A stretch of DNA of 64,000 bases from Blastomonas sp. (GTDB taxonomy: Bacteria; Pseudomonadota; Alphaproteobacteria; Sphingomonadales; Sphingomonadaceae): NCBI RefSeq assembly GCF_030373265.1, contig NZ_JAUCZC010000016.1:1-64000 (forward strand), given 5' to 3'. The notes under the pieces are model-generated. The model was not told where the DNA came from. It searched no databases and saw only the letters and a list, made by a program, of their open reading frames with translations. Of the stretch, positions 22,626-39,256 are shown in pieces. Numbering within the stretch: position 1 is the stretch's first letter; every line of letters begins with the position of its first letter. The position numbers and the translations under genes were made by a program.

Positions 22626-24824
22626 TTACCAGATGCGGATACGCTTTTCCGGCGGCAAATACAGCGCGTCGCCCGGCTGAACGTTGAACGCTTCATACCA
22701 CTCGTCGAAATTGCGGACCGTGCCGTTGGCGCGATAGTTGGCCGGCGAGTGAGAATCGGTCTGGAGCTGCTGGCGCAAATACTCCTCGCGCGACTTGTTG
22801 CGCCACACCTGCGCCCACGCCATGAAGAAGCGCTGATCGCCGGTCAGCCCGTCGATCACCTTGTCTTCCTTGCCATCGAGATGGATCTTGTAGGCACGGT
22901 ATGCCATCGACAGACCGCCGACATCGCCGATGTTCTCGCCCAGCGTCAGCGCACCGTTGACGCAGGTCTTGCCATCGTCGAGCGGGCACAGTTCGCTGTA
23001 TTGCGCCACCAGGGCGTTGGTCAGTTTCTTGAAGTTGGCTTGGTCTTCTGCGGTCCACCAGTCGCGCAGCACGCCGTCGCCATCCGACTTGGACCCCTGA
23101 TCGTCGAAACCATGGCCCATTTCATGGCCGATGACACCGCCGATCGCGCCATAATTGACCGCAGGGTCCGCCGACAGGTTGAAGAACGGCGGCTGCAGGA
23201 TTGCAGCGGGGAATACGATCTCGTTGCGCGGCGGCGAATAATAGGCGTTCACCGTCTGGGGCAGCATGAACCATTCGGTCTTGTCGATCGGCTTGCCCAG
23301 CTTCGAGATGTTGTCGTTATAGCCCCATTTGGTCGCGGCCATGACGTTATCCAGCGCCTTGCCGGGGGCCACGGCCAGGGTGTCATAGGTCTCGAACTTC
23401 TCGGTATAGCCGATCTTAGGGGTGAACTTGGCCAGCTTGTCACGCGCCTCGACCTTGGTGGCCTCTCCCATCCAGTCGATCTCGACCAGATTCGCCGCCA
23501 TTGCCTTGCGCAGGTTTCCGACCAGCTCGTCCATCGCCGCCTTGTTATCGGACGGGAAATATCGGTCGGCGTAGATCTTGCCGACGATCTCGCCCATCGT
23601 GCCTTCGACGGCAGCGACGCCGCGCTGCCAGCGCTCGCGCTGCGTCTGCTGGCCGCCCAGAACCTTGCCATAAAAGGCGAAGTTGGCATCATCGATGTCC
23701 GAAGGCAGCACGCTGGCGTTGGCAGTGAGGAAGCCTGCAGTCAGCCATGCCTGCCAGGCTTCGACAGGCGCGGTGTTGGCCAGCCGGAACAGCCCGGGAA
23801 TGCCGCTGCCAAGCTTGGCCGCCTGCTCGGGCGTCAGCTTTTCCGCTGCCAGTTCCTCGGCCGTGGGGGTGAGCTGACGGACCACGAACTCCTGCTGCCC
23901 GTCGACGCCGATGGCCTGCATGAAGGTTTCGACCGGGAAACCGTCGCCCAGTGCCACCATCTCCGCCTTGGAGAGCTTGTTGTAGGTGAGGTTGCGGTTG
24001 CGGCCGATGGCGCGATCCCAATGTTCGGTCGCGATCGCCTTTTCCAGATCATACACTGTTTGCGCGGTCGCCGCAGGGTCCGCATATCCGGCCTTGCCCA
24101 TCAGGAAGGTCAGATACTCCAAATAGGCTGTGCGGATCTTCAGGTTCGCCTCGCTGTCGACCAGATAATAATCGCGGTCGGGCAACCCCAGCCCCGCCTG
24201 CGTCACCTGGAAGATGTACTTGTCGGTCTCCTTGGAATCGATGTCGACAAAGCCGGCGACGGGGCTGCGGAAACCGGGCGTGCCGAACAGCTTGGCCAGA
24301 TCTTCGCGGGTCTTGGCCGCCTTGATGGTGTCGAGATAGGGCTGGGCAGGGGCCAGGCCTGCCGCGTCGATCGCGGCCGTGTCCAGATAGGCGTTGTAGA
24401 ACGCGGCCACCTTGCCCGCGCCGGTCCCGGCATCGGGCTTGGTCGCGGCGAGTTCGTCGATGATCTTGCGGACGCGCTGCTCGGACTTTTCTGCCAGCAG
24501 AGTGAAGGCACCGTAACGGGCCCGGTCGGCCGGGATCTCAAAGGTGTCGAGCCACTTGCCGTTGACGTGGGCGTAGAAGTCGTCGCCCGGCTTGACTGCG
24601 GGGTTCATGACCGTGGTGTCGATACCCCAGTTGCCCCAATAATCGCGCGCGGTGGTGGTGATGCCTTCGGCATCGGCAGCGCCGGTTGCCGCAGTGGTGC
24701 CGGGAGCCTCGCCCTCGATCAGCATGTCGATGTCAGGGCCGTTGGCATCGGGCTTGTGCGCGTAGGCAGGTGCGGCCGTCAGCGCGACAAGCGCTGCCGA
24801 TGCCAGCAGAATCGATTTTACCAT
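22626..24824 (-). CDS. M13 family metallopeptidase (PepO/neprilysin-like)
   Basis: VIGHEMGHGFDDQGSKSDGDG (HExxH), ENIGDVGGLSMAYRAY, signal peptide. Confidence 0.93.
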   Translation of the reverse strand: MVKSILLASAALVALTAAPAYAHKPDANGPDIDMLIEGEAPGTTAATGAADAEGITTTARDYWGNWGIDTTVMNPAVKPGDDFYAHVNGKWLDTFEIPADRARYGAFTLLAEKSEQRVRKIIDELAATKPDAGTGAGKVAAFYNAYLDTAAIDAAGLAPAQPYLDTIKAAKTREDLAKLFGTPGFRSPVAGFVDIDSKETDKYIFQVTQAGLGLPDRDYYLVDSEANLKIRTAYLEYLTFLMGKAGYADPAATAQTVYDLEKAIATEHWDRAIGRNRNLTYNKLSKAEMVALGDGFPVETFMQAIGVDGQQEFVVRQLTPTAEELAAEKLTPEQAAKLGSGIPGLFRLANTAPVEAWQAWLTAGFLTANASVLPSDIDDANFAFYGKVLGGQQTQRERWQRGVAAVEGTMGEIVGKIYADRYFPSDNKAAMDELVGNLRKAMAANLVEIDWMGEATKVEARDKLAKFTPKIGYTEKFETYDTLAVAPGKALDNVMAATKWGYNDNISKLGKPIDKTEWFMLPQTVNAYYSPPRNEIVFPAAILQPPFFNLSADPAVNYGAIGGVIGHEMGHGFDDQGSKSDGDGVLRDWWTAEDQANFKKLTNALVAQYSELCPLDDGKTCVNGALTLGENIGDVGGLSMAYRAYKIHLDGKEDKVIDGLTGDQRFFMAWAQVWRNKSREEYLRQQLQTDSHSPANYRANGTVRNFDEWYEAFNVQPGDALYLPPEKRIRIW

Positions 24825-25005: not shown

Positions 25006-26652
25006 TCAGGCGGGATCGGCGATCGTTCGGCGCCCCGGCCGAACACTGAGGCTGGTCGTGCCTGCCAATGCTGGATCCCGCTCGCGGATCGTGCGCAATT
25101 TGTGCCAGTGCGCGGTGGCGCTGTCCTTGGTCAGGTTCAGCGTCATATAGCCGCGCGCGCTGGTGTCGGCCCATTTGAGCTGCGGATTGGCACGAACCAG
25201 CGCCCCTGCGACATCCGTGGGCGCAATCGTCGGGGCATAGGCCTCGAAGCCGGGCGAACTGATCGAGTGGCCGGCAAATTCCACGCCCGCTGGCTTGCCG
25301 CCGGCATCGAGGTCGAAACCCCAAGCGTTGTGGCTGTCGCCAGACAGCACGACCAGATCGGCGTCTGCGGCTTGCGCGGATTTCAGCAAGGCCTCGCGCT
25401 GCACCGGATAGCCGTCCCAAGCGTCCATGTTCAACGGCAGCCCGGCCTTGCTTGCGGCAAGCCCCGCGGCCGAGCGGGTCCGCACGATCTGTGGCGCATC
25501 CTTGGGCACCCAGTCGGCCGTCTCCAGCGGCAGCTTGAGCGACCCCATGACGCATTGCTGCGCCCACACCTGCCAGCGCGTTCCCGATGCCTTCGATGCC
25601 CTGAACTGGTCACCCAGCCAGCGCGCCTGGTCATCGCCCAGCATCCGGCGCGATGGGTCCATCCAGGTTTCGTTGCGGAACTTGGCCAGTGCTGCGGCCA
25701 GGTCGCCGCCGCCCGAAAAGGCTTCCGCCAGCTCGGCGGGCTTGTCGCGTCCCGACAGCCGGCTCTCGGTGCGGAACAGTGTGGCCAGATCGCCGATCTG
25801 ATAGCTGCGCCACAGCGTGTCGGACGGCGCCAGATCGGCGACCGGCATCCACTCGCGATAGACCTGTTCGGCGATGCGGCGGCGAACCATATAATCGCCC
25901 TCGGTCTCGCTCTGGTGATTCTGCGCACCGTCCCGATAGGCGTCGTTGGCGATCTCGTGGTCGTCCCACATCGCGATCATCGGCACCACCTGATGCAGCC
26001 GCTGGAGGTCGGCATCGAGCCGGTAGCTGGCATAGCGCAGCCGGTAATCGGCCAAGGTCACCATCTCGTGATCGGGCTGGACGCTGCGGCCGGGCAGGGC
26101 CTGCGTGCGGGTGGGGTACACGTCGAGACCATATTCATAGACGTAATCGCCGGTGTGCACCGCCAAGTCGATATCGTTGCGGGCCGCGGCATGGGCATAG
26201 CCGTTGAACCACCCGAACGGCAGGTTGGAGCAGGAAAAGACGCCGATGTTGAACGCGGCGGTGTCTCCCACCGGCAGGGTGCGGGTGCGCCCGACCGGGG
26301 ATGTGCTGCCGTCCGGCGCCACGAAGCGGTAAAAATACCAGCGGTCAGGGCTCAATCCCGAGACGGTGAGCTTGGCGATATGATCGCGTGCGCCGCTTGC
26401 GGTGACCGATCCTCCGCCGACGACCTTCGCGAAATCGGGGGAGGGGGAAAGCTCCGCGGTCAGCCGGGTATCGCCATCGGCGACATAGCGTGTCCACAGC
26501 AACACGGAGTCGCCCGCAGGCTCGCCGCTCGCGACGCCATGGGTGAAGCCTCGACCGGCAAACAGCGCCTGCGCCGCGCCCGGGATGGACAGTGCGGCCA
26601 GACCGAAGGTCCCGGCCTTGATCAGCAGTCTGCGGTCGATCGTCATTGTCAT
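25006..26652 (-). CDS. phoD: PhoD-type alkaline phosphatase family protein, probable Tat substrate
   Basis: TIDRRLLIKAGTFGLAALSIPGAAQA leader, THGVASGEPAGDSVLLWTRY, AMWDDHEIANDAYRDGAQNH, VVLSGDSHNAWGF. Confidence 0.88.
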   Translation of the reverse strand: MTMTIDRRLLIKAGTFGLAALSIPGAAQALFAGRGFTHGVASGEPAGDSVLLWTRYVADGDTRLTAELSPSPDFAKVVGGGSVTASGARDHIAKLTVSGLSPDRWYFYRFVAPDGSTSPVGRTRTLPVGDTAAFNIGVFSCSNLPFGWFNGYAHAAARNDIDLAVHTGDYVYEYGLDVYPTRTQALPGRSVQPDHEMVTLADYRLRYASYRLDADLQRLHQVVPMIAMWDDHEIANDAYRDGAQNHQSETEGDYMVRRRIAEQVYREWMPVADLAPSDTLWRSYQIGDLATLFRTESRLSGRDKPAELAEAFSGGGDLAAALAKFRNETWMDPSRRMLGDDQARWLGDQFRASKASGTRWQVWAQQCVMGSLKLPLETADWVPKDAPQIVRTRSAAGLAASKAGLPLNMDAWDGYPVQREALLKSAQAADADLVVLSGDSHNAWGFDLDAGGKPAGVEFAGHSISSPGFEAYAPTIAPTDVAGALVRANPQLKWADTSARGYMTLNLTKDSATAHWHKLRTIRERDPALAGTTSLSVRPGRRTIADPA

Positions 26653-26731
26653 GGCAAGGCTTCCCCCCGGGTAATGATCTGGCCGCGAGCTACGGCGCAT
26701 GTGCCTGATGATCACGTCCCGTGTCGTGCGT

Positions 26732-26794
26732 GTGACAATCGTTCAACATTTCTAAGATTACAAAAATATGACACAAAAACGTATTTTATATGAC
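26732..26794 (-). promoter_or_regulatory. Candidate Pho-box array upstream of phoD
   Basis: On minus strand: GTCAT(26790-26794), GTCAT(26768-26772), GTAAT(26757-26761), GTTGA(26743-26747), GTCAC(26732-26736); spacings 22, 11, 14, 11; classic TGTCATA-TTTT-TGTAATC and TGTTGAA-CGAT-TGTCACA. Confidence 0.6.
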
Positions 26795-26862
26795 ATTGGT
26801 GTTGCACCGGATGTCACAAAGGCATAGCCTGCTGCTTGTCACACGATGAAAGGATTGATGAC

Positions 26863-27273
26863 ATGAACACCAAAGTTATCGCATTCGCGGCGCTGGCCGC
26901 CCTCGGAATGGCTGCCCCTGGCTTTGCCCAGCCTGTGCAGAACCGGGCGGCGGCGACTGAAATCGGATATGACGCAGGCTCGCTTGGCTACGCCGCGATG
27001 CTGCAGGGCAATTATCCGGCCGCTCTGGAACAGATGCACGCCGCAGAGAAACAGGTTTCCCCCGCCGCCCGTCGTGATCCCGCCCGGTTGATCAATATGG
27101 GGCTGGCGTACGCCAAGCTGGGCGACGTCGGATCGGCGCGCCAGCATTATCAGGCGGCGATCGATACCCCGGTGTCGTTCGACATCGTCCTGTCCGATGG
27201 GCGGGTGATGGACAGCCGCGTTGCCGCGCGCCATGCCCTGCGCCGCCTCGATCAGGGCTATGCCAGCCGCTGA
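26863..27273 (+). CDS. Secreted tetratricopeptide-repeat-like protein
   Basis: Signal peptide; SLGYAAMLQGNYPAALEQMHAAEKQV...LINMGLAYAKLGDVGSARQHYQAAID (TPR-like). Confidence 0.7.
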   Translation: MNTKVIAFAALAALGMAAPGFAQPVQNRAAATEIGYDAGSLGYAAMLQGNYPAALEQMHAAEKQVSPAARRDPARLINMGLAYAKLGDVGSARQHYQAAIDTPVSFDIVLSDGRVMDSRVAARHALRRLDQGYASR

Positions 27274-27538
27274 TCGCCACGATCGCCTTCCGTATTGAAC
27301 GCGATGCCCGGTCGAATCCGTTTCGGCCGGGCTTTTGCATGGCCAGTCGGACAGATTGTTGCAAAATGATCACCTTCTGAGTCAATCGTGACCGCAAACA
27401 GACGTCGACTGCCGTGCTCCAGGCTGGCATCGACCCCCGACTGCTGCTGCAGTACCCGGAAAATAACGCAATAATTCCAGTCGCCTAGCCTGGAATGCGG
27501 TCCGGTTGACGCTGGATTGTCATATAAGACTCCAAATC

Positions 27539-27565
27539 GTCACATTCCTGTCGCTGCGCTGTCAC
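27539..27565 (+). promoter_or_regulatory. Candidate Pho-box triple upstream of lipoprotein/TBDR pair
   Basis: GTCAC(27539-27543), GTCGC(27550-27554), GTCAC(27561-27565), exact 11-nt spacing; contains CTGTCGC-TGCG-CTGTCAC. Confidence 0.6.
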
Positions 27566-27702
27566 TGAAATAGCGCCGCAGCTTCATCATGCCTGCCTAT
27601 CTGCCCTCTCGAACGGCGTTCCAGGGGGTGGAATCAGCTCATCTCCGCTTCGTTCCTGAAAAGCCGACAGCCCAGCCTGTCCAGATTTGCGGAGAATCAA
27701 AG

Positions 27703-29271
27703 ATGCTTAATGCACGTGTTCGTACGGTCCTGATGGCTTCGGCCGCGGCCCTAGTAGTAACCGCCTGCGGTGCAGATGATATTGCTTCGCCTGGCGAAGG
27801 CGTGATTGTTATTCCTGCCCCCACGCCGGCACCGGCTCCCACGCCAACGCCGACCCCGACCCCGACTCCGCCCAGCTTGGCCACTCCGGCAGCATCCTGC
27901 CCGTCTGCGATTTACACCGATCGCGGCACGATTTCGGGGCCGACCGGCACGTACCGCAACTGCGAGTTCCCCAGCCGTTTCACCAGCAACACCCAGGTGG
28001 CCCGCGTCCCCGGCGTCATCTATTCGATGGGTGGCCGCGTTGACGTCGGCACCGATCAGGGTCCGACGAGCACGGGCACGAATGTCATCCTGACCGTCGA
28101 TCCTGGCGTCGTGGTGTTTGCGAGCGGCGCCTCGTTCCTGGCGGTCAATCGCGGCAACCAGATCGATGCAGTGGGCACGGCGGCCCAGCCGATTATTTTC
28201 ACCGGACGCCAGAACGTGACCGGCGCAGCCACCGATGCAACCTCGCAGCTGTGGGGCGGCATCGTCCTCCTTGGCCGCGCGCCCATCACCGACTGCCTGG
28301 CTTCGGGTGCGACCCCGGGAACCGCCGCGTGCGAGCGTGACACCGAAGGCACCAGCAACGCGCTGTATGGCGGTGCATCGCCGACCGACAGCAGCGGTCG
28401 CATGCGCTATGTTCAGATCCGCTATTCGGGCTTTGTGCTCGAGCGCAACAGCGAGCTTCAGGGTCTTACCCCCTCGGGCACCGGATCGGGCACCGAACTG
28501 CAGTATATCCAGGTCCACAACAGCTCGGATGACGGCATCGAAATCTTCGGTGGCCGCGGTAACGCCAAGCACCTCGTCATCACCGGCGCGGAAGATGACA
28601 GCCTTGATACCGATGTCGGCTACAAGGGCTTCATCCAATATGTCCTCGCTATCCAGCGCTCGGACATCGGCGATTCGATCCTCGAAATCGACTCGGACAA
28701 TGCGAACGATGGTCAGACGCCGCGTCAGAACGTCCGGCTGTCCAACTTCACCTTCGTCAAGAACGGCGACAATCGCGCCGGCAACAACGGAACGGCCATC
28801 CTGCTTCGCGGCGGTGCCGACTATTCGTTCTTCAATGGCGTGATGGTCAGCCCCAACCTTCCGTGCTTCGCGGTCAGCCGGCCTCAGACGGCAGCCACTG
28901 CGGCCGATGCCTCGATCGACGAAGCGGGCGCTCCCGTCTTCCGTTCGGTGCAGTTCCAGTGCCCTTCGGGCAACGCCTTCAGCGGTCGTAACGGCGTCAC
29001 CAACGAGCAGGTCGCTTCGCTGTTCAACGCTGGCACCAACGTCAGCTCGACCTTCTCGCCGACTCTGTCCGCGATTTATATCAACGGCTCTGCAGAAACC
29101 GCCATCCCGGCATTCGATGCTTCGACGATCAATTCGTTCTTCGAGCGCACGAACTATATCGGTGCGGTCCGTGATGCGAATGACCGGTGGTTTGCCGGAT
29201 GGACCTGCAACTCCAACTTCGCCAACTTCGGGTCCAGCAGCGGCAGCTGCACCTCTATCCCCGTGATCTGA
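27703..29271 (+). CDS. Large lipoprotein with Pro/Thr linker, hypothetical
   Basis: MLNARVRTVLMASAAALVVTACG lipobox; PAPTPAPAPTPTPTPTPTPP linker; long Ser/Thr/Gly/Asn-rich body; directly upstream of a TonB receptor. Confidence 0.8.
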   Translation: MLNARVRTVLMASAAALVVTACGADDIASPGEGVIVIPAPTPAPAPTPTPTPTPTPPSLATPAASCPSAIYTDRGTISGPTGTYRNCEFPSRFTSNTQVARVPGVIYSMGGRVDVGTDQGPTSTGTNVILTVDPGVVVFASGASFLAVNRGNQIDAVGTAAQPIIFTGRQNVTGAATDATSQLWGGIVLLGRAPITDCLASGATPGTAACERDTEGTSNALYGGASPTDSSGRMRYVQIRYSGFVLERNSELQGLTPSGTGSGTELQYIQVHNSSDDGIEIFGGRGNAKHLVITGAEDDSLDTDVGYKGFIQYVLAIQRSDIGDSILEIDSDNANDGQTPRQNVRLSNFTFVKNGDNRAGNNGTAILLRGGADYSFFNGVMVSPNLPCFAVSRPQTAATAADASIDEAGAPVFRSVQFQCPSGNAFSGRNGVTNEQVASLFNAGTNVSSTFSPTLSAIYINGSAETAIPAFDASTINSFFERTNYIGAVRDANDRWFAGWTCNSNFANFGSSSGSCTSIPVI

Positions 29272-29284
29272 ACAAACTGAATAA

Positions 29285-29308
29285 GGGTCGAGCCATCCGG
29301 CTCGACCC
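29285..29308 (+). other. Perfect 10-bp intercistronic hairpin between lipoprotein and TBDR genes
   Basis: GGGTCGAGCC-atcc-GGCTCGACCC. Confidence 0.85.
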
Positions 29309-29327
29309 CCATACTATGGGGGTTATT

Positions 29328-32060
29328 ATGCGAATGCCGCTATCCTTTGCGGGCGCACTCTTGCTGAGCACAGCGCTTGTTGCTCCTTCCAGCGCCTGGG
29401 CGCAATCGTCTGACGGGCAGGCTGGTGGTGGCACCGTCAGCCAGAATGCGCAGGCTGGCGGCACCGTCGTCCCGGACGCGCAGGCTGAACCGGACCTCGG
29501 CGCAGAAGAGGAAGTCGATGTTTCCGGTCCCGGTGCTGGCGGGCAGGAGATCGTCGTCCGCGGCCGGTTCATTCCGAATACCCTCAGGGCGAATACCGAG
29601 GTCGTATCGGTGCTGTCCTCGGCGGATATTGCGCGTACCGGCGAAGGCGACATCGCGGGCGCGCTCGAGCGCGTCACCGGTCTCAGCGTCGTCGGCAACG
29701 GTTTCGTCTACGTCCGCGGTTTGGGCGACCGCTATTCGCTGGCTCTGCTCAACGGCTCGCCGCTGCCCAGCCCCGAGCCGCTCAAGCGCGTGGTTCCGCT
29801 CGACATTTTCCCGACGAGCGTGATCGCATCGTCGGTGGTTCAGAAGACGTTTTCGGCGAGTTATCCCGGTGAATTCGGCGGCGGTGCGATCAATCTGACC
29901 ACCATCGCTACTCCCGCAGAACCGTTTCTCAACGTGTCGTTCAGCACGGGTGGGGATACGGAAACCACGGGACAGCTTGGCTACACCTATTTCGGGTCGC
30001 GCACCGACTGGACGGGGTTCGACAATGGAACCCGTGACATTCCCCCGCTGTTGAGCGCGGCGCTGAACAGCGGCCGCCCCATCCTGCCGGGCGCGGACTT
30101 CACGCTCGACGATCTGAAGGCCATCCAGCTTCAGCTTGTCAATGCGCCGACCACCGTCCTGCAACGCAACAACAACATTCCGGTGAACTGGTCCGCGGGC
30201 TTTTCCGGCGGGACCACCATTCCGATTGGCGATACCCAACTGGGCCTGATCGCTTCGGCCAATATCAGCAACAAGTGGCTGACCCGTCAAACGCTCCAGC
30301 AGTCTGCAAGCACGCTCGACCTTTCGGGTACGCCGGCCTCCGACTTTACCCGCGTCATCACCGACAACCGCATCATCGTCAGCGGATTGCTGGGCGCGGC
30401 GCTTGAGTTCGGCGAGCACAAGCTGCGCTGGACCAACCTGTATATCCGCGACACTCTGAAGCAGGGGCGGTTGGGCGTCGGCACCAACATCAACACCTTC
30501 CAGACCGAGTTGCTCGAGCAGGACACCGCCTGGTTCGAGCGCCAGCTGATCAATTCCCAGCTCGTCGGCGAATTCAAGTTCGACGCCTTTTCGGTCAACA
30601 CCCGCGGCGGATATGCCAACTCGCAGCGCGAAGCGCCCTACGAGCGCAGCTTCACGTATGTTCGGTCGACCGTTGATGATCCGAACAATCCCCTGAGCCG
30701 GAAATTCATCAACGACCTCGGGGGGTCTTCCCAGGGCGTAGCTTCGCTGGCGTTCAGCGACCTGAATGAAGATCTCTGGTTCGGCAGTATCGATCTGGGC
30801 TATGAAGTGACCCCCGATATCACGGCGTCGATCGGATATGCCTATACGGACGCATCCCGCAGTGCCGTGCGCAGAGCCTTTCTCTATCGCGCGCCCGGTC
30901 TGCCGATCCCCGTCCAGCAGTTGCGGCCCGATTTCCTGCTGTCCGATGCAAGCGTCCAGTTGTACGACATCTTCCTGATCGAAACGTCGGCGCAGGACGG
31001 CACGGCAGCGTTCCAGGCCGACCTGACGACTCACGCCGGATATTTCCAGCTTCAGGTCAATATGGCCGAAGGATTGAGCCTCAACGCCGGCGTGCGCTAT
31101 GAGGACGCGGAACTGACAGTGGTACCGGTCGATTTGTTCGACAGCGGTGCATCGGCCATCGTCGCGACCAACCTCAACAACGACTACTTCTTGCCCACTG
31201 CAACCCTGACCTGGGAATTCCTTCCCGACATGCAGCTGCGCTTCAACGTGTCGAGCACGATCGCCCGGCCCCAGTTCCGCGAGTTGATCGCGCAGGTCTT
31301 CCAGGACACGGACAGCAACCGCGTGTTCCGTGGCAACCCATCGCTACAGGATAGCCGCCTGATCAATGCCGAGGCACGCTACGAGTGGTATTTCGACCGC
31401 GATCAGCGTTTCTCGGCAGCCGGTTTCTTCAAATCGATCGACAATCCGATCGAAACCTTCACCTCGAATTCGGACAACGTCGTCAACTCCAGTTTTGCCA
31501 ACGCTCCCAAGGCAACGCTGTATGGTGCCGAGGTCGAAGCGATAAAGTATTTCGACATGGCCAACTGGATCGATGGTGATTTTTTCACCTCGCGCCGGCT
31601 GCTGCTTCTGGCAAACTACACCTTCACGCAGTCTGAACTGAAAGTGCGGCCCGGTGATGTGACGGTGGTGAACGGGTTGAGCTCTGCAGCCTCGAATTTC
31701 TTCATCGATGGGGCGCCCTTGACCGGACAGTCGGATCACATCGTCAACCTGCAGATCGGCCTCGAGGATACCGAGCGGCTGTCCCAGCAGACGCTGCTGT
31801 TCATCTACAACAGCGATCGTGTGACCAGCCGCGGCCCTTCCGGTCAGCCGGACATCTTCGAGAAACCCGGGCTTCGTCTCGACTTTGTCGCAAGGCAGGG
31901 CATCCGACTGGGCGGATTGGACGCCGAGCTGAAATTCGAGGCGCGCAACATTACGCGCACCAAGTACCAGGAACTTCAGCGGGTTGGCGACAATCGCATT
32001 TTCTACAACCGCTATGATCTTGGCGCAGCTTTCAGCATTGGTTTGTCCGCCAATTTCTGA
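29328..32060 (+). CDS. TonB-dependent receptor
   Basis: Plug-domain motifs SADIARTGEGDIAGALERVTGLSVVGNGFVYVRGLGDRYSLALLNGSPLPSPEPLKRVVPLDIFP; beta-barrel C-terminus ending in SIGLSANF. Confidence 0.93.
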   Translation: MRMPLSFAGALLLSTALVAPSSAWAQSSDGQAGGGTVSQNAQAGGTVVPDAQAEPDLGAEEEVDVSGPGAGGQEIVVRGRFIPNTLRANTEVVSVLSSADIARTGEGDIAGALERVTGLSVVGNGFVYVRGLGDRYSLALLNGSPLPSPEPLKRVVPLDIFPTSVIASSVVQKTFSASYPGEFGGGAINLTTIATPAEPFLNVSFSTGGDTETTGQLGYTYFGSRTDWTGFDNGTRDIPPLLSAALNSGRPILPGADFTLDDLKAIQLQLVNAPTTVLQRNNNIPVNWSAGFSGGTTIPIGDTQLGLIASANISNKWLTRQTLQQSASTLDLSGTPASDFTRVITDNRIIVSGLLGAALEFGEHKLRWTNLYIRDTLKQGRLGVGTNINTFQTELLEQDTAWFERQLINSQLVGEFKFDAFSVNTRGGYANSQREAPYERSFTYVRSTVDDPNNPLSRKFINDLGGSSQGVASLAFSDLNEDLWFGSIDLGYEVTPDITASIGYAYTDASRSAVRRAFLYRAPGLPIPVQQLRPDFLLSDASVQLYDIFLIETSAQDGTAAFQADLTTHAGYFQLQVNMAEGLSLNAGVRYEDAELTVVPVDLFDSGASAIVATNLNNDYFLPTATLTWEFLPDMQLRFNVSSTIARPQFRELIAQVFQDTDSNRVFRGNPSLQDSRLINAEARYEWYFDRDQRFSAAGFFKSIDNPIETFTSNSDNVVNSSFANAPKATLYGAEVEAIKYFDMANWIDGDFFTSRRLLLLANYTFTQSELKVRPGDVTVVNGLSSAASNFFIDGAPLTGQSDHIVNLQIGLEDTERLSQQTLLFIYNSDRVTSRGPSGQPDIFEKPGLRLDFVARQGIRLGGLDAELKFEARNITRTKYQELQRVGDNRIFYNRYDLGAAFSIGLSANF

Positions 32061-32090
32061 CGCGTCAGCGCGGTTTCAACGCGACCATAA

Positions 32091-32125
32091 GGGGGGCGGG
32101 CGACAAGCCTGCCCCCTACTTGTTT
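32091..32125 (+). terminator. Putative terminator after TonB-dependent receptor gene
   Basis: GGGGGCGGGC-gacaa-GCCTGCCCCC (one mismatch) followed by tacttgttt. Confidence 0.7.
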
Positions 32126-32166
32126 GCGCTTCAGATGCGCGCCGACGCATTTGCGTTCAAATATCT

Positions 32167-32193
32167 GTCACAAACTGGTAATCCAACCGTCAT
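32167..32193 (+). promoter_or_regulatory. Candidate Pho-box triple upstream of gspC
   Basis: GTCAC(32167-32171), GTAAT(32178-32182), GTCAT(32189-32193), exact 11-nt spacing, 60 bp upstream of gspC GTG. Confidence 0.6.
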
Positions 32194-32252
32194 TCACTGC
32201 GCCTAGCAGCGAGTGAGGGCCAAGGGGATCGGCCTGCAAAGGGGAGTGATTC

Positions 32253-33149
32253 GTGGCATCAGCGGCCCATAACGGCGCGCAGACAGGCCTTGGCGCTTCA
32301 CTCTCCCGATTCCGGTCGGCAAGGTTTGAAGGGCGGGGCGGCAGTGTCGCTCGGTTTCTGCCGGTCGGCCTGTATGGCTGGCTGCGGGCTCTGCTTGTGC
32401 TGGCGCTGGTCATCCAGCTTGCCCGGCTGATCTGGACAATTGTCACCCCGATTTCCCCTTTGGGCGACTGGCAGGCGCGCACCGCAAACGTCATGTCCGC
32501 TCCCTCGCGCGCAGCGCTCTTCGCCAGTTTTGACGGGTTCGATCGCGCCGCCGCAACGGGCGATGCCAGCGCGGCGGTCACCTCGCTCGATCTTACGCTC
32601 TACGGGCTGCGGATGAACGAGGCTTCGGGCGGCGGCTCTGCGATCATAGCCGGATCCGACGGGGTGCAGCGCAGCTATTCGGTTGGCGAGGAAGTCGCCT
32701 CCGGGGTCAAGCTGGTTGAGGTGCTGTTCGATCATGTCGTGCTCGAGCGCGGCGGATCGCGCGAAAGCCTGTTCATCGATCAGTCGGTTCCCGCCGAGAC
32801 GGTGGGCGATACCGCCGCTGCCCCGGTATCCGGAGCGCCGCAGCTGCCGGTAGCCCAAGCAGGGCCGCTTACGTCAGACGCGATCACCGCAGGCATTGGC
32901 TTTGCACCGCGCTCCGAAAACGGCCGCGTCAGCGGTTTCGCCGTCACCCCCAAGGCCGATGGTGCGGTGTTTGCGCAGGCCGGGTTCAAACCCGGTGATA
33001 TCGTCGTGGAAATCAACGGCCGCAAGGTCAGCTCCGCCCAGGATGGCGCGGCGCTGGCAGGGCAGCTTCGCCCTGGTGCCCGCATTTCGCTGCTCGTCGA
33101 GCGCGGCACAGAAACCCTTCCCATCGCGCTGATCATTCCGGAACCATGA
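32253..33149 (+). CDS. gspC: Type II secretion system protein GspC
   Basis: Single N-terminal TM, LYGLRMNEASGGGSAIIAGSDGVQRSYSVGEEV HR domain, PDZ domain; overlaps gspD by ATGA. Confidence 0.88.
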   Translation: MASAAHNGAQTGLGASLSRFRSARFEGRGGSVARFLPVGLYGWLRALLVLALVIQLARLIWTIVTPISPLGDWQARTANVMSAPSRAALFASFDGFDRAAATGDASAAVTSLDLTLYGLRMNEASGGGSAIIAGSDGVQRSYSVGEEVASGVKLVEVLFDHVVLERGGSRESLFIDQSVPAETVGDTAAAPVSGAPQLPVAQAGPLTSDAITAGIGFAPRSENGRVSGFAVTPKADGAVFAQAGFKPGDIVVEINGRKVSSAQDGAALAGQLRPGARISLLVERGTETLPIALIIPEP

Positions 33150-35338
33150 AAAAACACATCTCAACCCTGGCGCTGTGCGCCGCGCTCGTGCTGTCGTCGC
33201 CCTTGGCCGCGCAGCACAGCCTGAATGTCCGCGATGCCGATGTCCGCGCCTTTATCGAGGACGCGGCGACGGTCACCGGACGCACCTTCATCATCGACGG
33301 CCGTGTGCAGGGCAAGGTTTCGGTGGTCACCGATCGGCCCTTGAGCCGCAGTGAATATTTCGAGGTGTTCCTTTCCACCTTGCGCGCCAACGGGCTGATC
33401 GCGGTGCCGACCGCCAACGGTGCGTACCGCGTTCAGCCGACCGATGGCGCGGCCTCGGCACCAGGCCGGGTGGGCAGCCGCGGTGGGCAGAACGAGTTCG
33501 TCACCGAAGTCTTCCGCCTGCGCGCGATCGACGCGAGCACGGCGGTCGAGACGCTGCGTCCTCTGGTTAGCCGCGAAGGCTCGATCACCGCGAACCGCAG
33601 CGGCAACAGCCTGGTCGTCGCCGATTATGCCGACAACATCCGCCGTATCCGCGCGCTGATCGGCCAGATCGACCGTGACAATGCGACCACCCAGGTGATC
33701 ACGCTCAACCATGCCGGCGCGCGAGAAATCGCGATGACGCTGCAGCAGCTCAGCCCGGCACCGGGCGGCGGCGCAGAAGGCGGCGGGGGCGCGCCTCTGG
33801 TGTCGGTCGTCGCAGTGGACAGCAGCAACTCGGTCGCGTTGCGCGGCGATGCGCCAACGGTAGCGCGGCTCACCGCGATCGCCCGAGAGCTGGATGCACG
33901 CGCCGCCAATGGCAGCGAAATCCGCGTAATCTGGCTCGATTATGCCGATGCCCAACAGCTGGTGCCGGTGCTGCAGATGATGGCCGGCAGCCAGGGCGGG
34001 GGCGGCATGCAGCCGCTGTCGGCGGCGGTCGCAGCGCCCGCAGCCAATGGCGCGGCGACCGGCGGAGCATCGGCTCCGGTCGGTGGCGCGGTGGCGCTGT
34101 CGAACGGGCGCGGCCAGGCGATCATCACCCGCTATGAGGGCGCCAATGCGGTGATCATCTCGGCACCGGTGGATGTCCAGCGCTCGCTGGCCGAACTGGT
34201 ACGCCAGCTCGATATCCGCCAGGAACAGGTTCTGGTCGAGGCGATCATCGTCGAGATTTCGGACCGGGTGGCGCGCGAGCTCGGCGTCCAGTTCCTCATC
34301 GGCGGCAAGGACATCCCGTTCCTCGTCACGCCGTTCTCCAACGTCACGCCCAACATTCTGGATATTGCAGGCGGCCTGCTTGCCAATGACCTGGATGAAA
34401 CGACCACCGTGATCAACGGCAACACCGTGACCACCAGCACCAACAGCGCGGTGGGCGATTTCCTCCGTCAGAACGCAGCCAACCGCATCTTGGGCGCGCG
34501 CGGCGGCTATACCGGTTTTGCCGCCGATATCGGCAACAACCGCGTGCTGGGCGCGATCATCAACGCGGTGCAGGAAGACAGCGATTCGAACATCCTGTCG
34601 ACGCCGTCGCTGACCGTGAACGACAACGTCCAGGGTTCGATCCTGTTCGGTCAGGAAATCCCGGTCAGCACCGGCGAGGCGCTGTCGAACAATTTCGACA
34701 ACGCCTTCCGCACCATCCAGCGCCAGAATGTCGGCATCGAGCTCGAAGTGAAGCCGCAGATCAATGCCGGCAACCAGGTCAAGCTTCAGATCCGGCAGGA
34801 GGTCAGTTCGATCGTCGGTCCGGTGAGCGATGATTTCAACGAACTGATCATCAACAAGCGCGAAGTCGAAACCACGGTCACCGTCAAGGACCGCGAGATT
34901 ATCGCTCTGGGCGGACTGCTCGACGACAATGAACGCCGCACGATCCAGAAGATTCCGTTCCTGGGCGATATTCCGATCATCGGTGAACTGTTCAAGTCGC
35001 GTGGCAAGGAACGCACCAAGACCAACCTGATGGTGTTCATCCGCCCAACGATCCTGCGCACCGCAGAAGATGCGCAGGCAATCGCTGCGCGGCGTTACAA
35101 TTATGTGCGCGCGGCGCAGATCGAGTTTAACCCCAAAAGCGAACCCTCGCTCGACGCGATTGTGCGCGATTATATGGGGGCAAACATTCCGGTCGCTCCG
35201 CCTGCAGGGCCGAACGATCTGGTCGTATCGCCGCGCGCGATGCCGAACAGCGCGCCGCTCGACAGCATGACACTGCCGCCGAGCCAGCCTGCGCAGCGAT
35301 CAGGCCAGATGCCGCCCTTGCCGGGAGAACAGCCATGA
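33146..35338 (+). CDS. gspD: Type II secretion system secretin GspD
   Basis: N0/N1 domains, VLVEAIIVEISD, SNILSTPSLTVNDN, GIELEVKPQIN secretin motifs. Confidence 0.95.
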   Translation: MKKHISTLALCAALVLSSPLAAQHSLNVRDADVRAFIEDAATVTGRTFIIDGRVQGKVSVVTDRPLSRSEYFEVFLSTLRANGLIAVPTANGAYRVQPTDGAASAPGRVGSRGGQNEFVTEVFRLRAIDASTAVETLRPLVSREGSITANRSGNSLVVADYADNIRRIRALIGQIDRDNATTQVITLNHAGAREIAMTLQQLSPAPGGGAEGGGGAPLVSVVAVDSSNSVALRGDAPTVARLTAIARELDARAANGSEIRVIWLDYADAQQLVPVLQMMAGSQGGGGMQPLSAAVAAPAANGAATGGASAPVGGAVALSNGRGQAIITRYEGANAVIISAPVDVQRSLAELVRQLDIRQEQVLVEAIIVEISDRVARELGVQFLIGGKDIPFLVTPFSNVTPNILDIAGGLLANDLDETTTVINGNTVTTSTNSAVGDFLRQNAANRILGARGGYTGFAADIGNNRVLGAIINAVQEDSDSNILSTPSLTVNDNVQGSILFGQEIPVSTGEALSNNFDNAFRTIQRQNVGIELEVKPQINAGNQVKLQIRQEVSSIVGPVSDDFNELIINKREVETTVTVKDREIIALGGLLDDNERRTIQKIPFLGDIPIIGELFKSRGKERTKTNLMVFIRPTILRTAEDAQAIAARRYNYVRAAQIEFNPKSEPSLDAIVRDYMGANIPVAPPAGPNDLVVSPRAMPNSAPLDSMTLPPSQPAQRSGQMPPLPGEQP

Positions 35339-36924
35339 AGATCCGCAAAGGCGACGCTCCCATGGAAGAGGCCGCTAGCGAAGGGCCCGGCTCTGCGCTC
35401 GACCTGTCGGTTGATCGCACCCTGTCGCGGATGATGCTCGACATCCCCTATGGCTTTGCCCGCGACAATGGCGTGGTGATGCTGGGCGAGGCCGAGGGGC
35501 GGCTCAAGGTCGCTTTGCGCGAAGGCGCGGACCCGATCACTTTGCTCGAGGTGCGGCGCTATCTCGCGATGCCGTTCGATGTCGAGATCGCCCCGGTGGC
35601 GCAGTTCGAACGCTATCTGTCGGATCATTATGCGGTCGAGGGCAATGCAGCGGCGATGGCGAGCTCGATGAACATCGATGGCGGCGATCTCGAGATGCTG
35701 GCAAGCGACCTGCCCAGCGCCGAGGATCTGCTCGACAGCGCCGATGATGCGCCCGCGATCCGGCTGATCAACGGCGTGATCGCCGAGGCCGCGCGCCAGG
35801 GCGTGTCTGACATCCATATCGAGCCTTATGAAACCGGGCTGGTCATCCGCATGCGCATGGATGGCGTGCTGCAGGAAAAGCTGCGGATGCCGCCCAATGT
35901 CGCGCCGGTGATCGTCAGCCGGATCAAGGTGATGGCGCGGCTCGACATCGCCGAGCGCCGCGTGCCGCAGGATGGCCGCATCGGTCTGACGATCGGCGGC
36001 AAATTGCTCGACGTCCGCGTCTCGACCTTGCCCAGTCGCGCGGGCGAGCGCGTCGTTCTGCGCCTGCTCGACAAGGAAAACGCCAATATGGATCTGGGGC
36101 TGCTGGGCATGAGTCCGCGCACCCACAAGATCCTCGCCGAGGCGCTGTCCGAACCCAATGGCATCGTGCTGGTCACCGGTCCCACTGGATCGGGCAAGAC
36201 GACGACGCTCTATTCGTGCCTCAAGCAATTGAACGATGGCTCGCGCAACATGCTGACCGTCGAGGACCCGGTCGAATATGCGATCGAAGGCGTCGGCCAG
36301 ACCCAGGTCAATCCCAAGGTCGGGCTCACCTTTGCCGCAGGGCTGCGCGCGATCCTGCGCCAGGATCCCGACGTGGTGATGATCGGCGAAATCCGCGATC
36401 ACGAGACCGCCGAGATCGCGGTGCAGGCTTCGCTGACCGGACATCTGGTGCTCTCGACCGTCCACACCAACGATGCGATCGGCGCGATCACCCGGATGCG
36501 CGACATGAAGATCGAGCCGTTCCTGCTCGCCTCGACCTTGCGTGCGGTCGTTGCGCAGCGGCTGGTGCGGCGGCTGTGCCCCGACTGCCGCGAGCCGGTG
36601 CAGGCCGATGGCTCGCTCGCCTCGCTGCTCGGCTTCGACAAGGGCACCGTGGTCTATCGCCCGGTCGGCTGCGATTCGTGCAACCACACCGGCTTCCAGG
36701 GACGCATCGGCGTGTTCGAGGCGGTGCGCGTCGACGAAACGATCCGCCGGCTGATAAACGACGGCGGCGACGAGGCGATCATCTCGCGGCATGCCTTCCT
36801 CAACGCGCCCAACCTCGGCTCGGCGGCGCGCGAACTCGTCCGCACCGGGCAGACCACCGCGGAAGAGGCGATCCGGATTTCAAGGCGCGAGGCTGAACCG
36901 GTGCCCGAAACGGCCAATGGCTGA
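35335..36924 (+). CDS. gspE: Type II secretion system ATPase GspE
   Basis: GPTGSGKTTTLYSCL Walker A, tetracysteine CPDCREP...CDSCNHTGFQGR. Confidence 0.96.
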   Translation: MKIRKGDAPMEEAASEGPGSALDLSVDRTLSRMMLDIPYGFARDNGVVMLGEAEGRLKVALREGADPITLLEVRRYLAMPFDVEIAPVAQFERYLSDHYAVEGNAAAMASSMNIDGGDLEMLASDLPSAEDLLDSADDAPAIRLINGVIAEAARQGVSDIHIEPYETGLVIRMRMDGVLQEKLRMPPNVAPVIVSRIKVMARLDIAERRVPQDGRIGLTIGGKLLDVRVSTLPSRAGERVVLRLLDKENANMDLGLLGMSPRTHKILAEALSEPNGIVLVTGPTGSGKTTTLYSCLKQLNDGSRNMLTVEDPVEYAIEGVGQTQVNPKVGLTFAAGLRAILRQDPDVVMIGEIRDHETAEIAVQASLTGHLVLSTVHTNDAIGAITRMRDMKIEPFLLASTLRAVVAQRLVRRLCPDCREPVQADGSLASLLGFDKGTVVYRPVGCDSCNHTGFQGRIGVFEAVRVDETIRRLINDGGDEAIISRHAFLNAPNLGSAARELVRTGQTTAEEAIRISRREAEPVPETANG

Positions 36925-38122
36925 CTTTGCCTATAAGGTGATCGATGCGGCCGGGCGCGAACGGCAGGGGCGGATTAGCGCGCCTTCCGATGCGCAGGCG
37001 CGCGCAGCGTTGATCCGCAAGGCGTTCCACATCGTCACCGTATCGCCAGCGCCGCCGCGCAAAGCGTTGCTGTCGCAGCGCACCGCGCGATTGAGCCCCA
37101 AGCAGCTCACCCTGTTCACCCGGCAGATGTCGTCGCTGATGTCCGTCAGCCCGCTCGAGGAAGCGCTGCGCACGATCAGCCGCCAGACCGAAAAGGCCAA
37201 CGCCCGCGATGTGCTGATCAACGTTCACGCAGGCGTGATGGAGGGCCAGTCGCTTGCTGAATCGATGGCGCGCGAGGCACGCAGCTTTCCGCCGCTGTAT
37301 CGCGCAATGATCAGCGCGGGCGAAAGCTCGGGCTCGCTGCCGGTGATCACCGAGCGGCTGGCGGCCTTGCTCGAGCAGCAGGCCGAGGTGCGCGGCAAGA
37401 TCATCGGGGCGCTGGCCTATCCGATCATCCTGACGCTGGTCGCCTTCGGCGTGGTCGCAGGCCTGATGATCTCGGTGGTCCCGCGGGTGGTCGAGCAGTT
37501 CGACAATGCCCAGACCCAGCTGCCGCTGATCACGCGGATCGTCATCGGGCTTTCCGATTTTCTCAGTACCTGGTGGTGGGCGCTTGCCATCGCGCTGGTG
37601 CTGGCGGGCATCGCCTTCTGGCGCGCGATGAAGGTGCCCAAATTCAAATACCGCTTCGACGGCATGCTGCTCAGGCTGCCGCTGATCGGACGGCTGATCC
37701 GCGACCTGAACGCGGCCAAGCTGGCGCGCACGCTGGCCACGATGGTGCACAGCCGCCTGCCGCTGCTCGAGGGCATGAAGCTGACCACCCGCACCGTGCG
37801 CAATGCGGTGCTGCGCGAGGCGCTCGAAGAAGCGGTCGAATCGATCCGTTCGGGCGGGTCCTTGTCGGGCGCGCTCCGCAATGCGGGGACGTTTCCGCCG
37901 CTTCTGGTGTATCTTGTTGCCAGCGGCGAAAGCGCCGGCCAGCTCGACACGATGCTCGAGCGCGCCGCCGAGTATCTGGAGCGCGAGTTCCAGAATTTCA
38001 CCTCCACCGCGATGGCGCTGCTCGAGCCGGCGATCATCGTGGTGATGGGCGGGGTGGTCGCACTGATCATCCTGTCGATCCTGCTGCCGATTCTGCAGCT
38101 TCAGAACCTGACTGGCTTATGA
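36917..38122 (+). CDS. gspF: Type II secretion system inner membrane protein GspF
   Basis: LFTRQMSSLMSVSPLEEALRTIS, two T2SSF repeats. Confidence 0.95.
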   Translation: MADFAYKVIDAAGRERQGRISAPSDAQARAALIRKAFHIVTVSPAPPRKALLSQRTARLSPKQLTLFTRQMSSLMSVSPLEEALRTISRQTEKANARDVLINVHAGVMEGQSLAESMAREARSFPPLYRAMISAGESSGSLPVITERLAALLEQQAEVRGKIIGALAYPIILTLVAFGVVAGLMISVVPRVVEQFDNAQTQLPLITRIVIGLSDFLSTWWWALAIALVLAGIAFWRAMKVPKFKYRFDGMLLRLPLIGRLIRDLNAAKLARTLATMVHSRLPLLEGMKLTTRTVRNAVLREALEEAVESIRSGGSLSGALRNAGTFPPLLVYLVASGESAGQLDTMLERAAEYLEREFQNFTSTAMALLEPAIIVVMGGVVALIILSILLPILQLQNLTGL

Positions 38123-38130
38123 GGAATATC

Positions 38131-38601
38131 ATGTTGAACTTTCGATCCGCGCTGCTGAAGCGCCTCTCGCCCAAGGCACGCAAGCGTGCCAATGGCTTCA
38201 CCCTCGTCGAACTGATGGTGGTGATCTTCATCATCGGTCTGCTCGCGACCGTGGTCGTGATCAATGTGCTGCCCAGCCAGGACCGCGCGATGACCGAAAA
38301 GGCGCGCAGCGACATTGCGACCTTGAGCCAGGCGCTCGAGATGTACCGGCTCGACAATCTTGCCTATCCGGGGTCGGCAGAGGGCTTGAACGCGCTGATG
38401 ACCCCACCTCCCACGCTGACGCAGCCCGGCCGCTATCGCAGCGGTGGCTATATCAAGCAGCTGCCGCAGGATCCGTGGGGCCGCCCGTACCAGTACACCA
38501 GCCCCGGCACCACCGGCGCGTTCGACCTCTATTCGCTGGGCGCCGACGGCGCACCGGGCGGCGAGAACGAGAATGCGGATATCACCGCCAATGGGGGGTG
38601 A
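38131..38601 (+). CDS. gspG: Major pseudopilin GspG
   Basis: ANG|FTLVELMVVIFIIGLLATVVV prepilin motif and DPWGRPYQYTSPG...DLYSLGADG. Confidence 0.96.
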   Translation: MLNFRSALLKRLSPKARKRANGFTLVELMVVIFIIGLLATVVVINVLPSQDRAMTEKARSDIATLSQALEMYRLDNLAYPGSAEGLNALMTPPPTLTQPGRYRSGGYIKQLPQDPWGRPYQYTSPGTTGAFDLYSLGADGAPGGENENADITANGG

Positions 38602-38608
38602 GACGCTT

Positions 38609-38769
38609 AAATCCTCCCCCAGCTTGCTGGGGGAGGGGGACCGTTCGCGCAGCGAATGGTGGAGGGGAAGCGGGATCGTACCGATGAAAAAGACGTGCGC
38701 CTCGCTTCCCCTCCACCCCGCCGCTGCGCGGCGCAGTCCCCCACCCCGAGACAAGCTCGGGGAGGATTT
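38609..38769. repeat. Palindromic CTCCCC-rich repeat element at gspG/gspH junction
   Basis: Terminal inverted repeats AAATCCTCCCCCAGCT / AGCTCGGGGAGGATTT (15/16 complementary); related to element at 40460-40598. Confidence 0.85.
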
Positions 38770-39256
38770 GAGCAACGGCTTCACGCTGATCGAACTGATG
38801 GTGGTGCTGTTCATCGTCGGGCTGGTCGCGGGCGCTGTGATGCTGTCCATCCCTGGCGACAGCTCGGCGCTTTCCGAAGATGCCGATCGCTTTGCCGCCC
38901 GCGTCGCCGCAGCGCGCGACGAGGCGGTGGTGAGCGCGCGGCCGATCGCGGTGTGGATCGCGCCATCGGGCTACGGCTTCGATGCGCGGCAGGACCGGCA
39001 ATGGGTTCCCTTGAACGCGCGGACGCTGGCCAACCGGGACTGGAAGCCGGGGACTATCGCCCGGATCGAAGGCGAGGCTGCACAATCCGTTGAACCGCCG
39101 GGCACCGATCCTGCCGCTGCAGCACCGACACGCGCGCGCTTCTGGTTCGACAGCACCGGACTGCCCAATGCGCCGGTGACGGTGTTGCTGTCGCGCGGCG
39201 CCAACAGCGACCGGATCATCATCAGCGCCACGGGGGAGGTGGGCCGCCCCCGGTGA
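38684..39256 (+). CDS. gspH: Pseudopilin GspH
   Basis: LSNG|FTLIELMVVLFIVGLVAGAVMLSIP prepilin motif; start is either ATG 38684 inside the repeat or TTG 38768 at its edge. Confidence 0.85.
   Translation: MKKTCASLPLHPAAARRSPPPRDKLGEDLSNGFTLIELMVVLFIVGLVAGAVMLSIPGDSSALSEDADRFAARVAAARDEAVVSARPIAVWIAPSGYGFDARQDRQWVPLNARTLANRDWKPGTIARIEGEAAQSVEPPGTDPAAAAPTRARFWFDSTGLPNAPVTVLLSRGANSDRIIISATGEVGRPR

What the first reader, a model, noticed from the sequence alone, without database searches (positions are those of the whole stretch)
25006..39256. Putative phosphate-starvation module: PhoD phosphatase, lipoprotein, TonB receptor and type II secretion, with Pho-box-like arrays at three promoters
Seen directly: three intergenic regions carry GTCAY-like half-sites at exact 11-nt steps, each oriented toward the gene it precedes: minus strand upstream of phoD (26732-26794), plus strand upstream of the lipoprotein/TBDR pair (27539, 27550, 27561), and plus strand upstream of gspC (32167, 32178, 32189). 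Established: PhoB binds tandem 7-bp direct repeats with 4-bp spacers (11-bp period, CTGTCAT-like), and a T2SS-exported lipoprotein induced by phosphate starvation (ElpS) is described in Caulobacter. Inference: these genes form one PhoB-controlled unit in which the T2SS exports the lipoprotein and/or phosphatase to the surface and the TBDR takes up a product.
Basis: partly seen in the sequence, partly recalled or inferred. Interest (0 to 1): 0.75.

Follow-up and report, generated by a model that had tools for sequence, protein, structure and literature searches.

The report
Phosphate-starvation surface-protein and secretion locus
A Blastomonas-like sphingomonad carries next to each other genes for a phosphatase, a surface lipoprotein with its outer-membrane receptor, and half of a protein-secretion machine, each behind a binding site for the phosphate-starvation regulator PhoB; this repeats a set-up known from Caulobacter, but comparison with relatives shows that many of them have a different secretion machine in its place, also under a PhoB site.

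Summary
With an untrained Pho half-site matrix, the best 3x11-bp array in the 64-kb window is at gspC, the second at elpS; phoD has a good two-unit box. Genome-wide only 8 sites have at most one mismatch; two are these, and the only perfect one is at pstS. The arrays recur upstream of elpS in 44/55 loci and, in a held-out set, upstream of gspC in 14/20, but not upstream of the TBDR (0/54, 0/20) or at other spacings. A fixed promoter geometry (half-site, 8 nt, NCTA) occurs in 44/56 elpS promoters. PhoB control of elpS-TBDR and gspCDEFGH is therefore very likely. It is not new in kind: Caulobacter ElpS and T2SS are already phosphate/PhoB-responsive. phoD is a Blastomonas-only neighbour, and in Caulobacter the T2SS only releases ElpS. 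Unexpected: of 65 genomes of the family with elpS, 26 have this T2SS and 34 a stripped VirB system (32 beside elpS), never both; the VirB operon has a near-consensus Pho box in 19/19 held-out cases.

The parts
25006..26652 (-). phoD: PhoD-like alkaline phosphatase with twin-arginine-type signal (DRRLLIK)
   Evidence: PF09423 327 bits, PF16655 87 bits; start and signal
26757..26796 (-). Pho-box array toward phoD: TTGTAAT, GTGTCAT, (AATACGT), ATGTCAT at 11-nt steps
   Evidence: top 2-unit site of the window, 17.6; conserved in B. aquatica; 4/4000 shuffles
26732..26738 (-). further TTGTCAC, out of 11-nt register (25 nt); role unclear
   Evidence: conserved in B. aquatica
26863..27273 (+). small secreted TPR protein; homologues recur beside elpS in other genera
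   Evidence: TPR_2, TPR_1; homologues in loci
27537..27565 (+). Pho-box array of elpS: TCGTCAC, CTGTCGC, CTGTCAC at 11-nt steps
27581..27601 (+). in-phase half-site GCTTCAT and -10-like CCTATC at the conserved 13-nt offset
   Evidence: offset 13 in 44 of 56 elpS promoters, 0-2 at other offsets
27602..27702 (+). elpS leader, almost identical in B. aquatica; no Rfam match and no stable fold
27703..29271 (+). elpS: lipoprotein (lipobox Cys22), right-handed beta-helix with an invariant acidic ladder (D276 D277 E280, D298 D299 D302 D304, E328)
   Evidence: AlphaFold pLDDT 88.9; alignment A1; no Pfam or NCBIfam family
29328..32060 (+). TonB-dependent receptor (TIGR01782-like), probably in one operon with elpS
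   Evidence: PF00593, PF07715; adjacent in 54 of 55 loci; no array of its own
32165..32193 (+). Pho-box array of gspC: CTGTCAC, TGGTAAT, CCGTCAT at 11-nt steps
   Evidence: best 3-unit array of the window, 23.6; conserved in B. aquatica
32202..32207 (+). -10-like CCTAGC at 13-nt offset from the last half-site
32253..33149 (+). gspC
   Evidence: PF11356 86 bits
33146..35338 (+). gspD secretin
   Evidence: PF00263 163 bits
35335..36924 (+). gspE ATPase
   Evidence: PF00437 470 bits
36917..38122 (+). gspF
   Evidence: PF00482 187 bits; start
38119..38601 (+). gspG major pseudopilin
   Evidence: GFTLVELMVV prepilin motif
38684..39256 (+). gspH (start uncertain); last gsp gene here, lldD follows on the minus strand
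   Evidence: PF12019, TIGR01708

Best explanation
This is the Blastomonas version of the Caulobacter ElpS phosphate-starvation locus. When phosphate is short, PhoR phosphorylates PhoB (gene at C11:90 kb, downstream of pstS), which binds 11-bp direct-repeat boxes that take the place of the -35 region and switches on phoD, elpS-TBDR and gspCDEFGH. ElpS, a beta-helix lipoprotein, is displayed on the outer membrane and works with its partner TonB-dependent receptor in capturing or processing a phosphorus-containing molecule; PhoD frees phosphate from phosphodiesters. The T2SS, completed by gspIJK and gspLMN encoded elsewhere without such boxes, secretes hydrolases and most likely the protease that sheds ElpS. 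Shown here by sequence: boxes, promoter geometry, gene content, conservation. Shown by others in Caulobacter: phosphate control of ElpS, PhoB control of the T2SS, T2SS-dependent release of ElpS. Inferred: PhoB binding in this species, the ElpS-TBDR partnership and its substrate, the T2SS substrates.
For: Arrays are top-ranked in window and genome, next to a perfect one at pstS. PhoB is present (TIGR02154, 333 bits). 11-bp arrays upstream of elpS in 44/55 loci against 2-6/55 at other spacings; TBDR upstream 0/54 as internal control. Held-out T2SS genomes: gspC 14/20 against 0-1/20, TBDR 0/20. Half-site to -10 offset of 13 nt in 44/56 elpS promoters. In relatives the other strong arrays near elpS sit at phoU, ppk, gspC of Brevundimonas and a VirB operon. 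elpS-TBDR adjacent in 54/55 loci; same order with gspC in Caulobacter. Caulobacter ElpS is made only at low phosphate (PMC2996285) and its T2SS is in the PhoB regulon (PMC11208175).
Against: No expression or binding data for this organism. In Caulobacter gspE and gspL mRNA rose only 1.7-fold in poor medium and the TBDR was reported constitutive (PMC2996285), so box strength may not equal strong induction. The gspC array of the window has one weak unit (GTAAT). gspIJK and gspLMN lack boxes, so only part of the machine would be induced. No direct sequence comparison with Caulobacter ElpS was possible; the Brevundimonas ElpS is 39% identical.
Confidence: 0.82

Rival explanations
1. The arrays bind another OmpR-family response regulator with an 11-bp direct-repeat site rather than PhoB.
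For: The genome has 12 Trans_reg_C proteins; two relatives have arrays before other response-regulator genes (L027, L050).
Against: The CTGTCAY consensus and 4-bp spacer are those of PhoB; the one perfect site in the genome is at pstS and other strong sites in relatives are at phoU and ppk.
Confidence: 0.08
2. Only elpS(-TBDR) and phoD are truly phosphate-regulated; the gspC array is weak in effect and the T2SS is essentially constitutive housekeeping.
For: [quoted passage not shown] two of the three gsp blocks here have no array.
Against: The gspC array is the highest-scoring of the window and an array is present in 14/20 held-out genomes; T2SS genes are listed in the Caulobacter PhoB regulon (PMC11208175).
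Confidence: 0.2
3. The arrays are chance or compositional matches.
For: Two-unit GTCA sites alone are expected dozens of times in a genome of this size.
Against: 0/4000 shuffles for elpS and gspC, no 3-unit site of 20 or more in 400 kb of background, conservation over many genera with spacing and gene-specific controls.
Confidence: 0.02

Closest known systems
Caulobacter crescentus ElpS (cc0170)-TBDR (cc0171)-gspC-N locus (PMC2996285; PhoB regulon PMC11208175)
   Same: Lipoprotein, TonB receptor and T2SS genes in the same order; phosphate or PhoB control; same arrangement already noted in Sphingomonas alaskensis.
   Different: Here a phoD and a TPR gene lie upstream, three separate Pho arrays are visible, and the T2SS is split into CDEFGH, IJK and LMN at three genome sites.
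Pseudomonas aeruginosa Hxc T2SS with LapA phosphatase (known to me; papers found not read)
   Same: T2SS deployed under phosphate limitation together with a phosphatase.
   Different: Different T2SS lineage and substrate; no ElpS or TBDR partner. Resemblance from memory, not tested.
Bacterial Pho regulon promoters (CTGTCAT-N4-CTGTCAT)
   Same: Half-site, 11-bp period, direct repeats, position upstream of a -10 element.
   Different: The -10-like element reads CCTANC at a fixed 13-nt offset.

Membership tests
PhoB (Pho box) regulon | Direct repeats of a CTGTCAT-like 7-mer with 11-bp period upstream of the gene, in its orientation | tested here: met
   phoD box shorter than claimed
PhoB (Pho box) regulon | PhoB and the Pst system present in the genome | tested here: met
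   PhoB TIGR02154 333 bits; PstS-like protein and sensor kinase at the perfect site
PhoB (Pho box) regulon | Induction at low phosphate that depends on phoB | not testable with these tools
   no expression data
ElpS (Caulobacter) family locus | Lipoprotein signal and about 50 kDa | tested here: met
   Cys22 invariant in 34 aligned sequences, 522 aa
ElpS (Caulobacter) family locus | TBDR directly downstream, T2SS next | tested here: met
   order of Caulobacter
ElpS (Caulobacter) family locus | Sequence homology to cc0170 itself | tested here: inconclusive
   only a Caulobacteraceae relative (Brevundimonas, 39%) could be compared
ElpS (Caulobacter) family locus | Surface display and T2SS-dependent release | not testable with these tools
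   experiment needed
Type II secretion system | Full set of core genes C to M | tested here: met
   CDEFGH in window, IJK on C35, L with M, N on C53
PhoD alkaline phosphatase | PhoD and PhoD_N domains above cut-off | tested here: met

The most novel reading that the evidence does not exclude
The PhoB-controlled ElpS-TBDR pair is a portable phosphorus-acquisition module that needs a dedicated envelope machine, and that machine is interchangeable: a T2SS in some lineages, and in others (Novosphingobium, Erythrobacteraceae) a stripped VirB system (VirB1, 2, 3, 4, 6, 9, 10, 11; no recognisable VirB8 in 7 of 8 and no VirD4 in 5 of 8 genomes) that took its place and came under its own Pho box. The VirB machine would then serve phosphorus acquisition, for instance by taking up DNA or exporting hydrolases, rather than conjugation.
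Probability: 0.5. Interest if true: 0.78.

Novelty: new member of a known kind. Interest (0 to 1): 0.52.

Why it matters
It carries the Caulobacter ElpS-T2SS phosphate response over to sphingomonads with a clear promoter signature, and gives a testable set of PhoB targets. The comparison raises a sharper question: why do relatives with the same ElpS-TBDR pair carry either a T2SS or a reduced VirB system, never both, each with Pho boxes? Answering it would help tell what ElpS does, which has been open since 2010, and could give a physiological role to VirB operons so far guessed to import DNA.

Tried and rejected
Sphingolipid genes as a Pho target: the strong array at C11:44866 lies between ACP-SPT genes and a membrane-protein gene but points away from ACP-SPT, so I dropped that reading. 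DUF3419 (BtaA-like) site: only 11.2 by matrix, kept as tentative. GspL looked absent with PF05134; a congener's GspL found it. First scoring of held-out VirB1 promoters failed because the query start ran through the promoter; corrected. Structured RNA in the conserved elpS leader: no Rfam family there, fold no better than shuffles. PDB relatives of ElpS by sequence: none; by fold only generic beta-helices, none with E below 0.001.

Full report
WHAT IS THERE. The window lies on contig C16 of a 3.66-Mb draft genome whose ElpS is 93% identical to that of Blastomonas aquatica. From left to right: an M13 peptidase gene and phoD (minus), a small TPR-protein gene (plus), a lipoprotein gene (here elpS), a TonB-dependent receptor gene, and gspC-D-E-F-G-H, followed by an L-lactate dehydrogenase gene on the minus strand. 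The likely true starts are phoD 26652, elpS 27703, TBDR 29328, gspF 36917, gspG 38119.

CHECK OF THE ARRAYS. The half-sites are at the stated coordinates for elpS and gspC. For phoD three good units are in register (26790, 26768, 26757), one in between is poor, and the unit at 26732 is out of register. With a Pho half-site matrix written down from the E. coli consensus before looking at scores, the two best 3-unit, 11-bp arrays of 64 kb on both strands are gspC (23.6) and elpS (19.7); the best 2-unit site is phoD (17.6). Dinucleotide shuffles reach these scores 0, 0 and 4 times in 4000. In 400 kb sampled from the same genome, one 3-unit site reaches 19 and none 20. Over the whole genome 8 sites match GTCAY-N6-GTCAY-N6-GTCAY with at most one mismatch. 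The perfect one is upstream of pstS, beside a histidine kinase gene; two are elpS and gspC; one precedes an ECF sigma-anti-sigma pair and a TBDR; one precedes a DUF3419 gene; one lies between ACP-SPT genes and a membrane-protein gene and points to the latter; two look like chance.

CONSERVATION. In B. aquatica all three arrays are conserved inside otherwise drifting intergenic sequence, and most substitutions inside them keep or improve the half-sites. In 55 loci from named genomes an array of 12 or more occurs upstream of elpS in 44, against 2-6 for periods 9, 10, 12 and 13; upstream of the TBDR in 0 of 54; upstream of gspC in 6 of 13. In 20 further genomes fetched afterwards as a test set, gspC has it in 14 of 20 (other periods 0-1), elpS in 13 of 19, TBDR in 0 of 20. 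The distance from a half-site to an NCTA element is 13 nt in 44 of 56 elpS promoters and 0-2 at any other distance; the window's elpS (TTCAT 27583, CCTATC 27596) and gspC (GTCAT 32189, CCTAGC 32202) both obey it. I read NCTA as part of the -10 element, with the Pho box in place of -35; that is inference. The genomes are related, so these counts are not independent events, but the internal controls share the same relatedness.

THE PROTEINS. PhoD has both PhoD domains and a twin-arginine-type signal. ElpS has a lipobox, no Pfam or NCBIfam family, and folds with good confidence (pLDDT 88.9) as a right-handed beta-helix with no close solved relative. An acidic ladder (D276, D277, E280, D298, D299, D302, D304, E328) is invariant in 34 sequences and several cysteines are nearly so; a metal site is a guess. 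The T2SS is complete but split: gspIJK on C35 and gspLMN on C53, neither with an array upstream. phoD lies within 10 kb of elpS only in Blastomonas.

WHAT IS KNOWN. In Caulobacter, ElpS (cc0170), a TBDR (cc0171) and gspC-N are adjacent; ElpS is made only at low phosphate; it is surface-anchored without the T2SS, and the T2SS is needed for its release, probably through a secreted protease; the same order was shown for Sphingomonas alaskensis (PMC2996285). The Caulobacter PhoB regulon includes the T2SS (PMC11208175).

WHAT LOOKS NEW. In many elpS loci without gsp genes, the other strong arrays head an operon of VirB1-like transglycosylase, VirB2, 3, 4, 6, 9, 10 and 11, divergent from elpS, with an exopolyphosphatase gene at its far end in the Novosphingobium locus L018. 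Over 151 genomes of the order, among 65 of the window's family with elpS, 34 have this VirB4 (32 of them 3.0-4.7 kb from elpS, always on the opposite strand) and none of these has gspD; 26 have gspD and none of these has this VirB4; the remaining 5 have only a divergent gspD. On an ElpS tree at least 3 switches between the two partners are needed (quick tree). Of 8 such genomes 7 lack a recognisable VirB8 and 5 lack VirD4. The same gene set was reported in two Citromicrobium genomes and guessed to import DNA, with no mention of phosphate in the passages I read (PMC3338782). I found no paper on a Pho-controlled VirB system of this kind, but the library holds open-access papers only. The co-occurrence and the boxes are shown; functional replacement of the T2SS by VirB, and its role, are inference.

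VERDICT. Observation confirmed, interpretation partly supported, kind known from Caulobacter; the alternation of secretion machines beside a shared PhoB-controlled lipoprotein-receptor pair is the part worth following.

Noticed in passing
L018:1536-9239 (also L020, L024, L027, L040, L041, L045, L049) and held-out loci L129-L148: Reduced VirB operon (VirB1, 2, 3, 4, 6, 9, 10, 11) divergent from elpS, with a near-consensus Pho box before the VirB1-like gene in 19 of 19 held-out genomes; never found in a genome of the family that has both elpS and gspD.
   Followed up: yes
L058, L059, L061, L065: In Hyphomonadaceae-like genomes elpS is double length (tandem beta-helix) and elpS-TBDR-VirB1-VirB2-VirB3-VirB4 run on one strand, with no separate array at VirB1.
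   Followed up: partly
window 32253-39256, G000:C35:23029-25126 (L098:9030-11127), G000:C53:4065-5650 (L128): The T2SS of this genome is broken into three blocks (CDEFGH, IJK, LMN); in a congener (G001) LMN also lies apart (L126). Only the first block has a Pho array.
   Followed up: yes
window 22626-24824 (-): Secreted M13 metallopeptidase gene directly downstream of phoD on the same strand in both Blastomonas genomes; a candidate for the T2SS-dependent protease that releases ElpS.
   Followed up: no
L101:6071-10558 (G000:C18): Strong Pho array (25.0) before an ECF sigma-anti-sigma pair and a TBDR with STN domain, reminiscent of phosphate-controlled cell-surface signalling such as Vre in Pseudomonas (abstract only).
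   Followed up: partly
L070:1501-1527 (G000:C11:44866-44892): Strong array (27.7) between ACP-serine palmitoyltransferase-like genes and a small membrane-protein gene; it points to the latter.
   Followed up: partly
L100:7103-7131 (G000:C10): One-mismatch array before a DUF3419 (BtaA-like) gene, which would fit betaine-lipid synthesis at low phosphate; weak by matrix (11.2).
   Followed up: partly
window 27602-27702: elpS leader of about 100 nt is nearly identical in B. aquatica; no Rfam family, no stable fold.
   Followed up: partly
window 26863-27273: Small secreted TPR protein whose homologues sit beside elpS in many genera on either strand; role unknown.
   Followed up: partly
L028:7533-8354, L051:6902-9135: In other genera elpS lies next to phoU or polyphosphate kinase genes that carry their own strong arrays.
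   Followed up: partly
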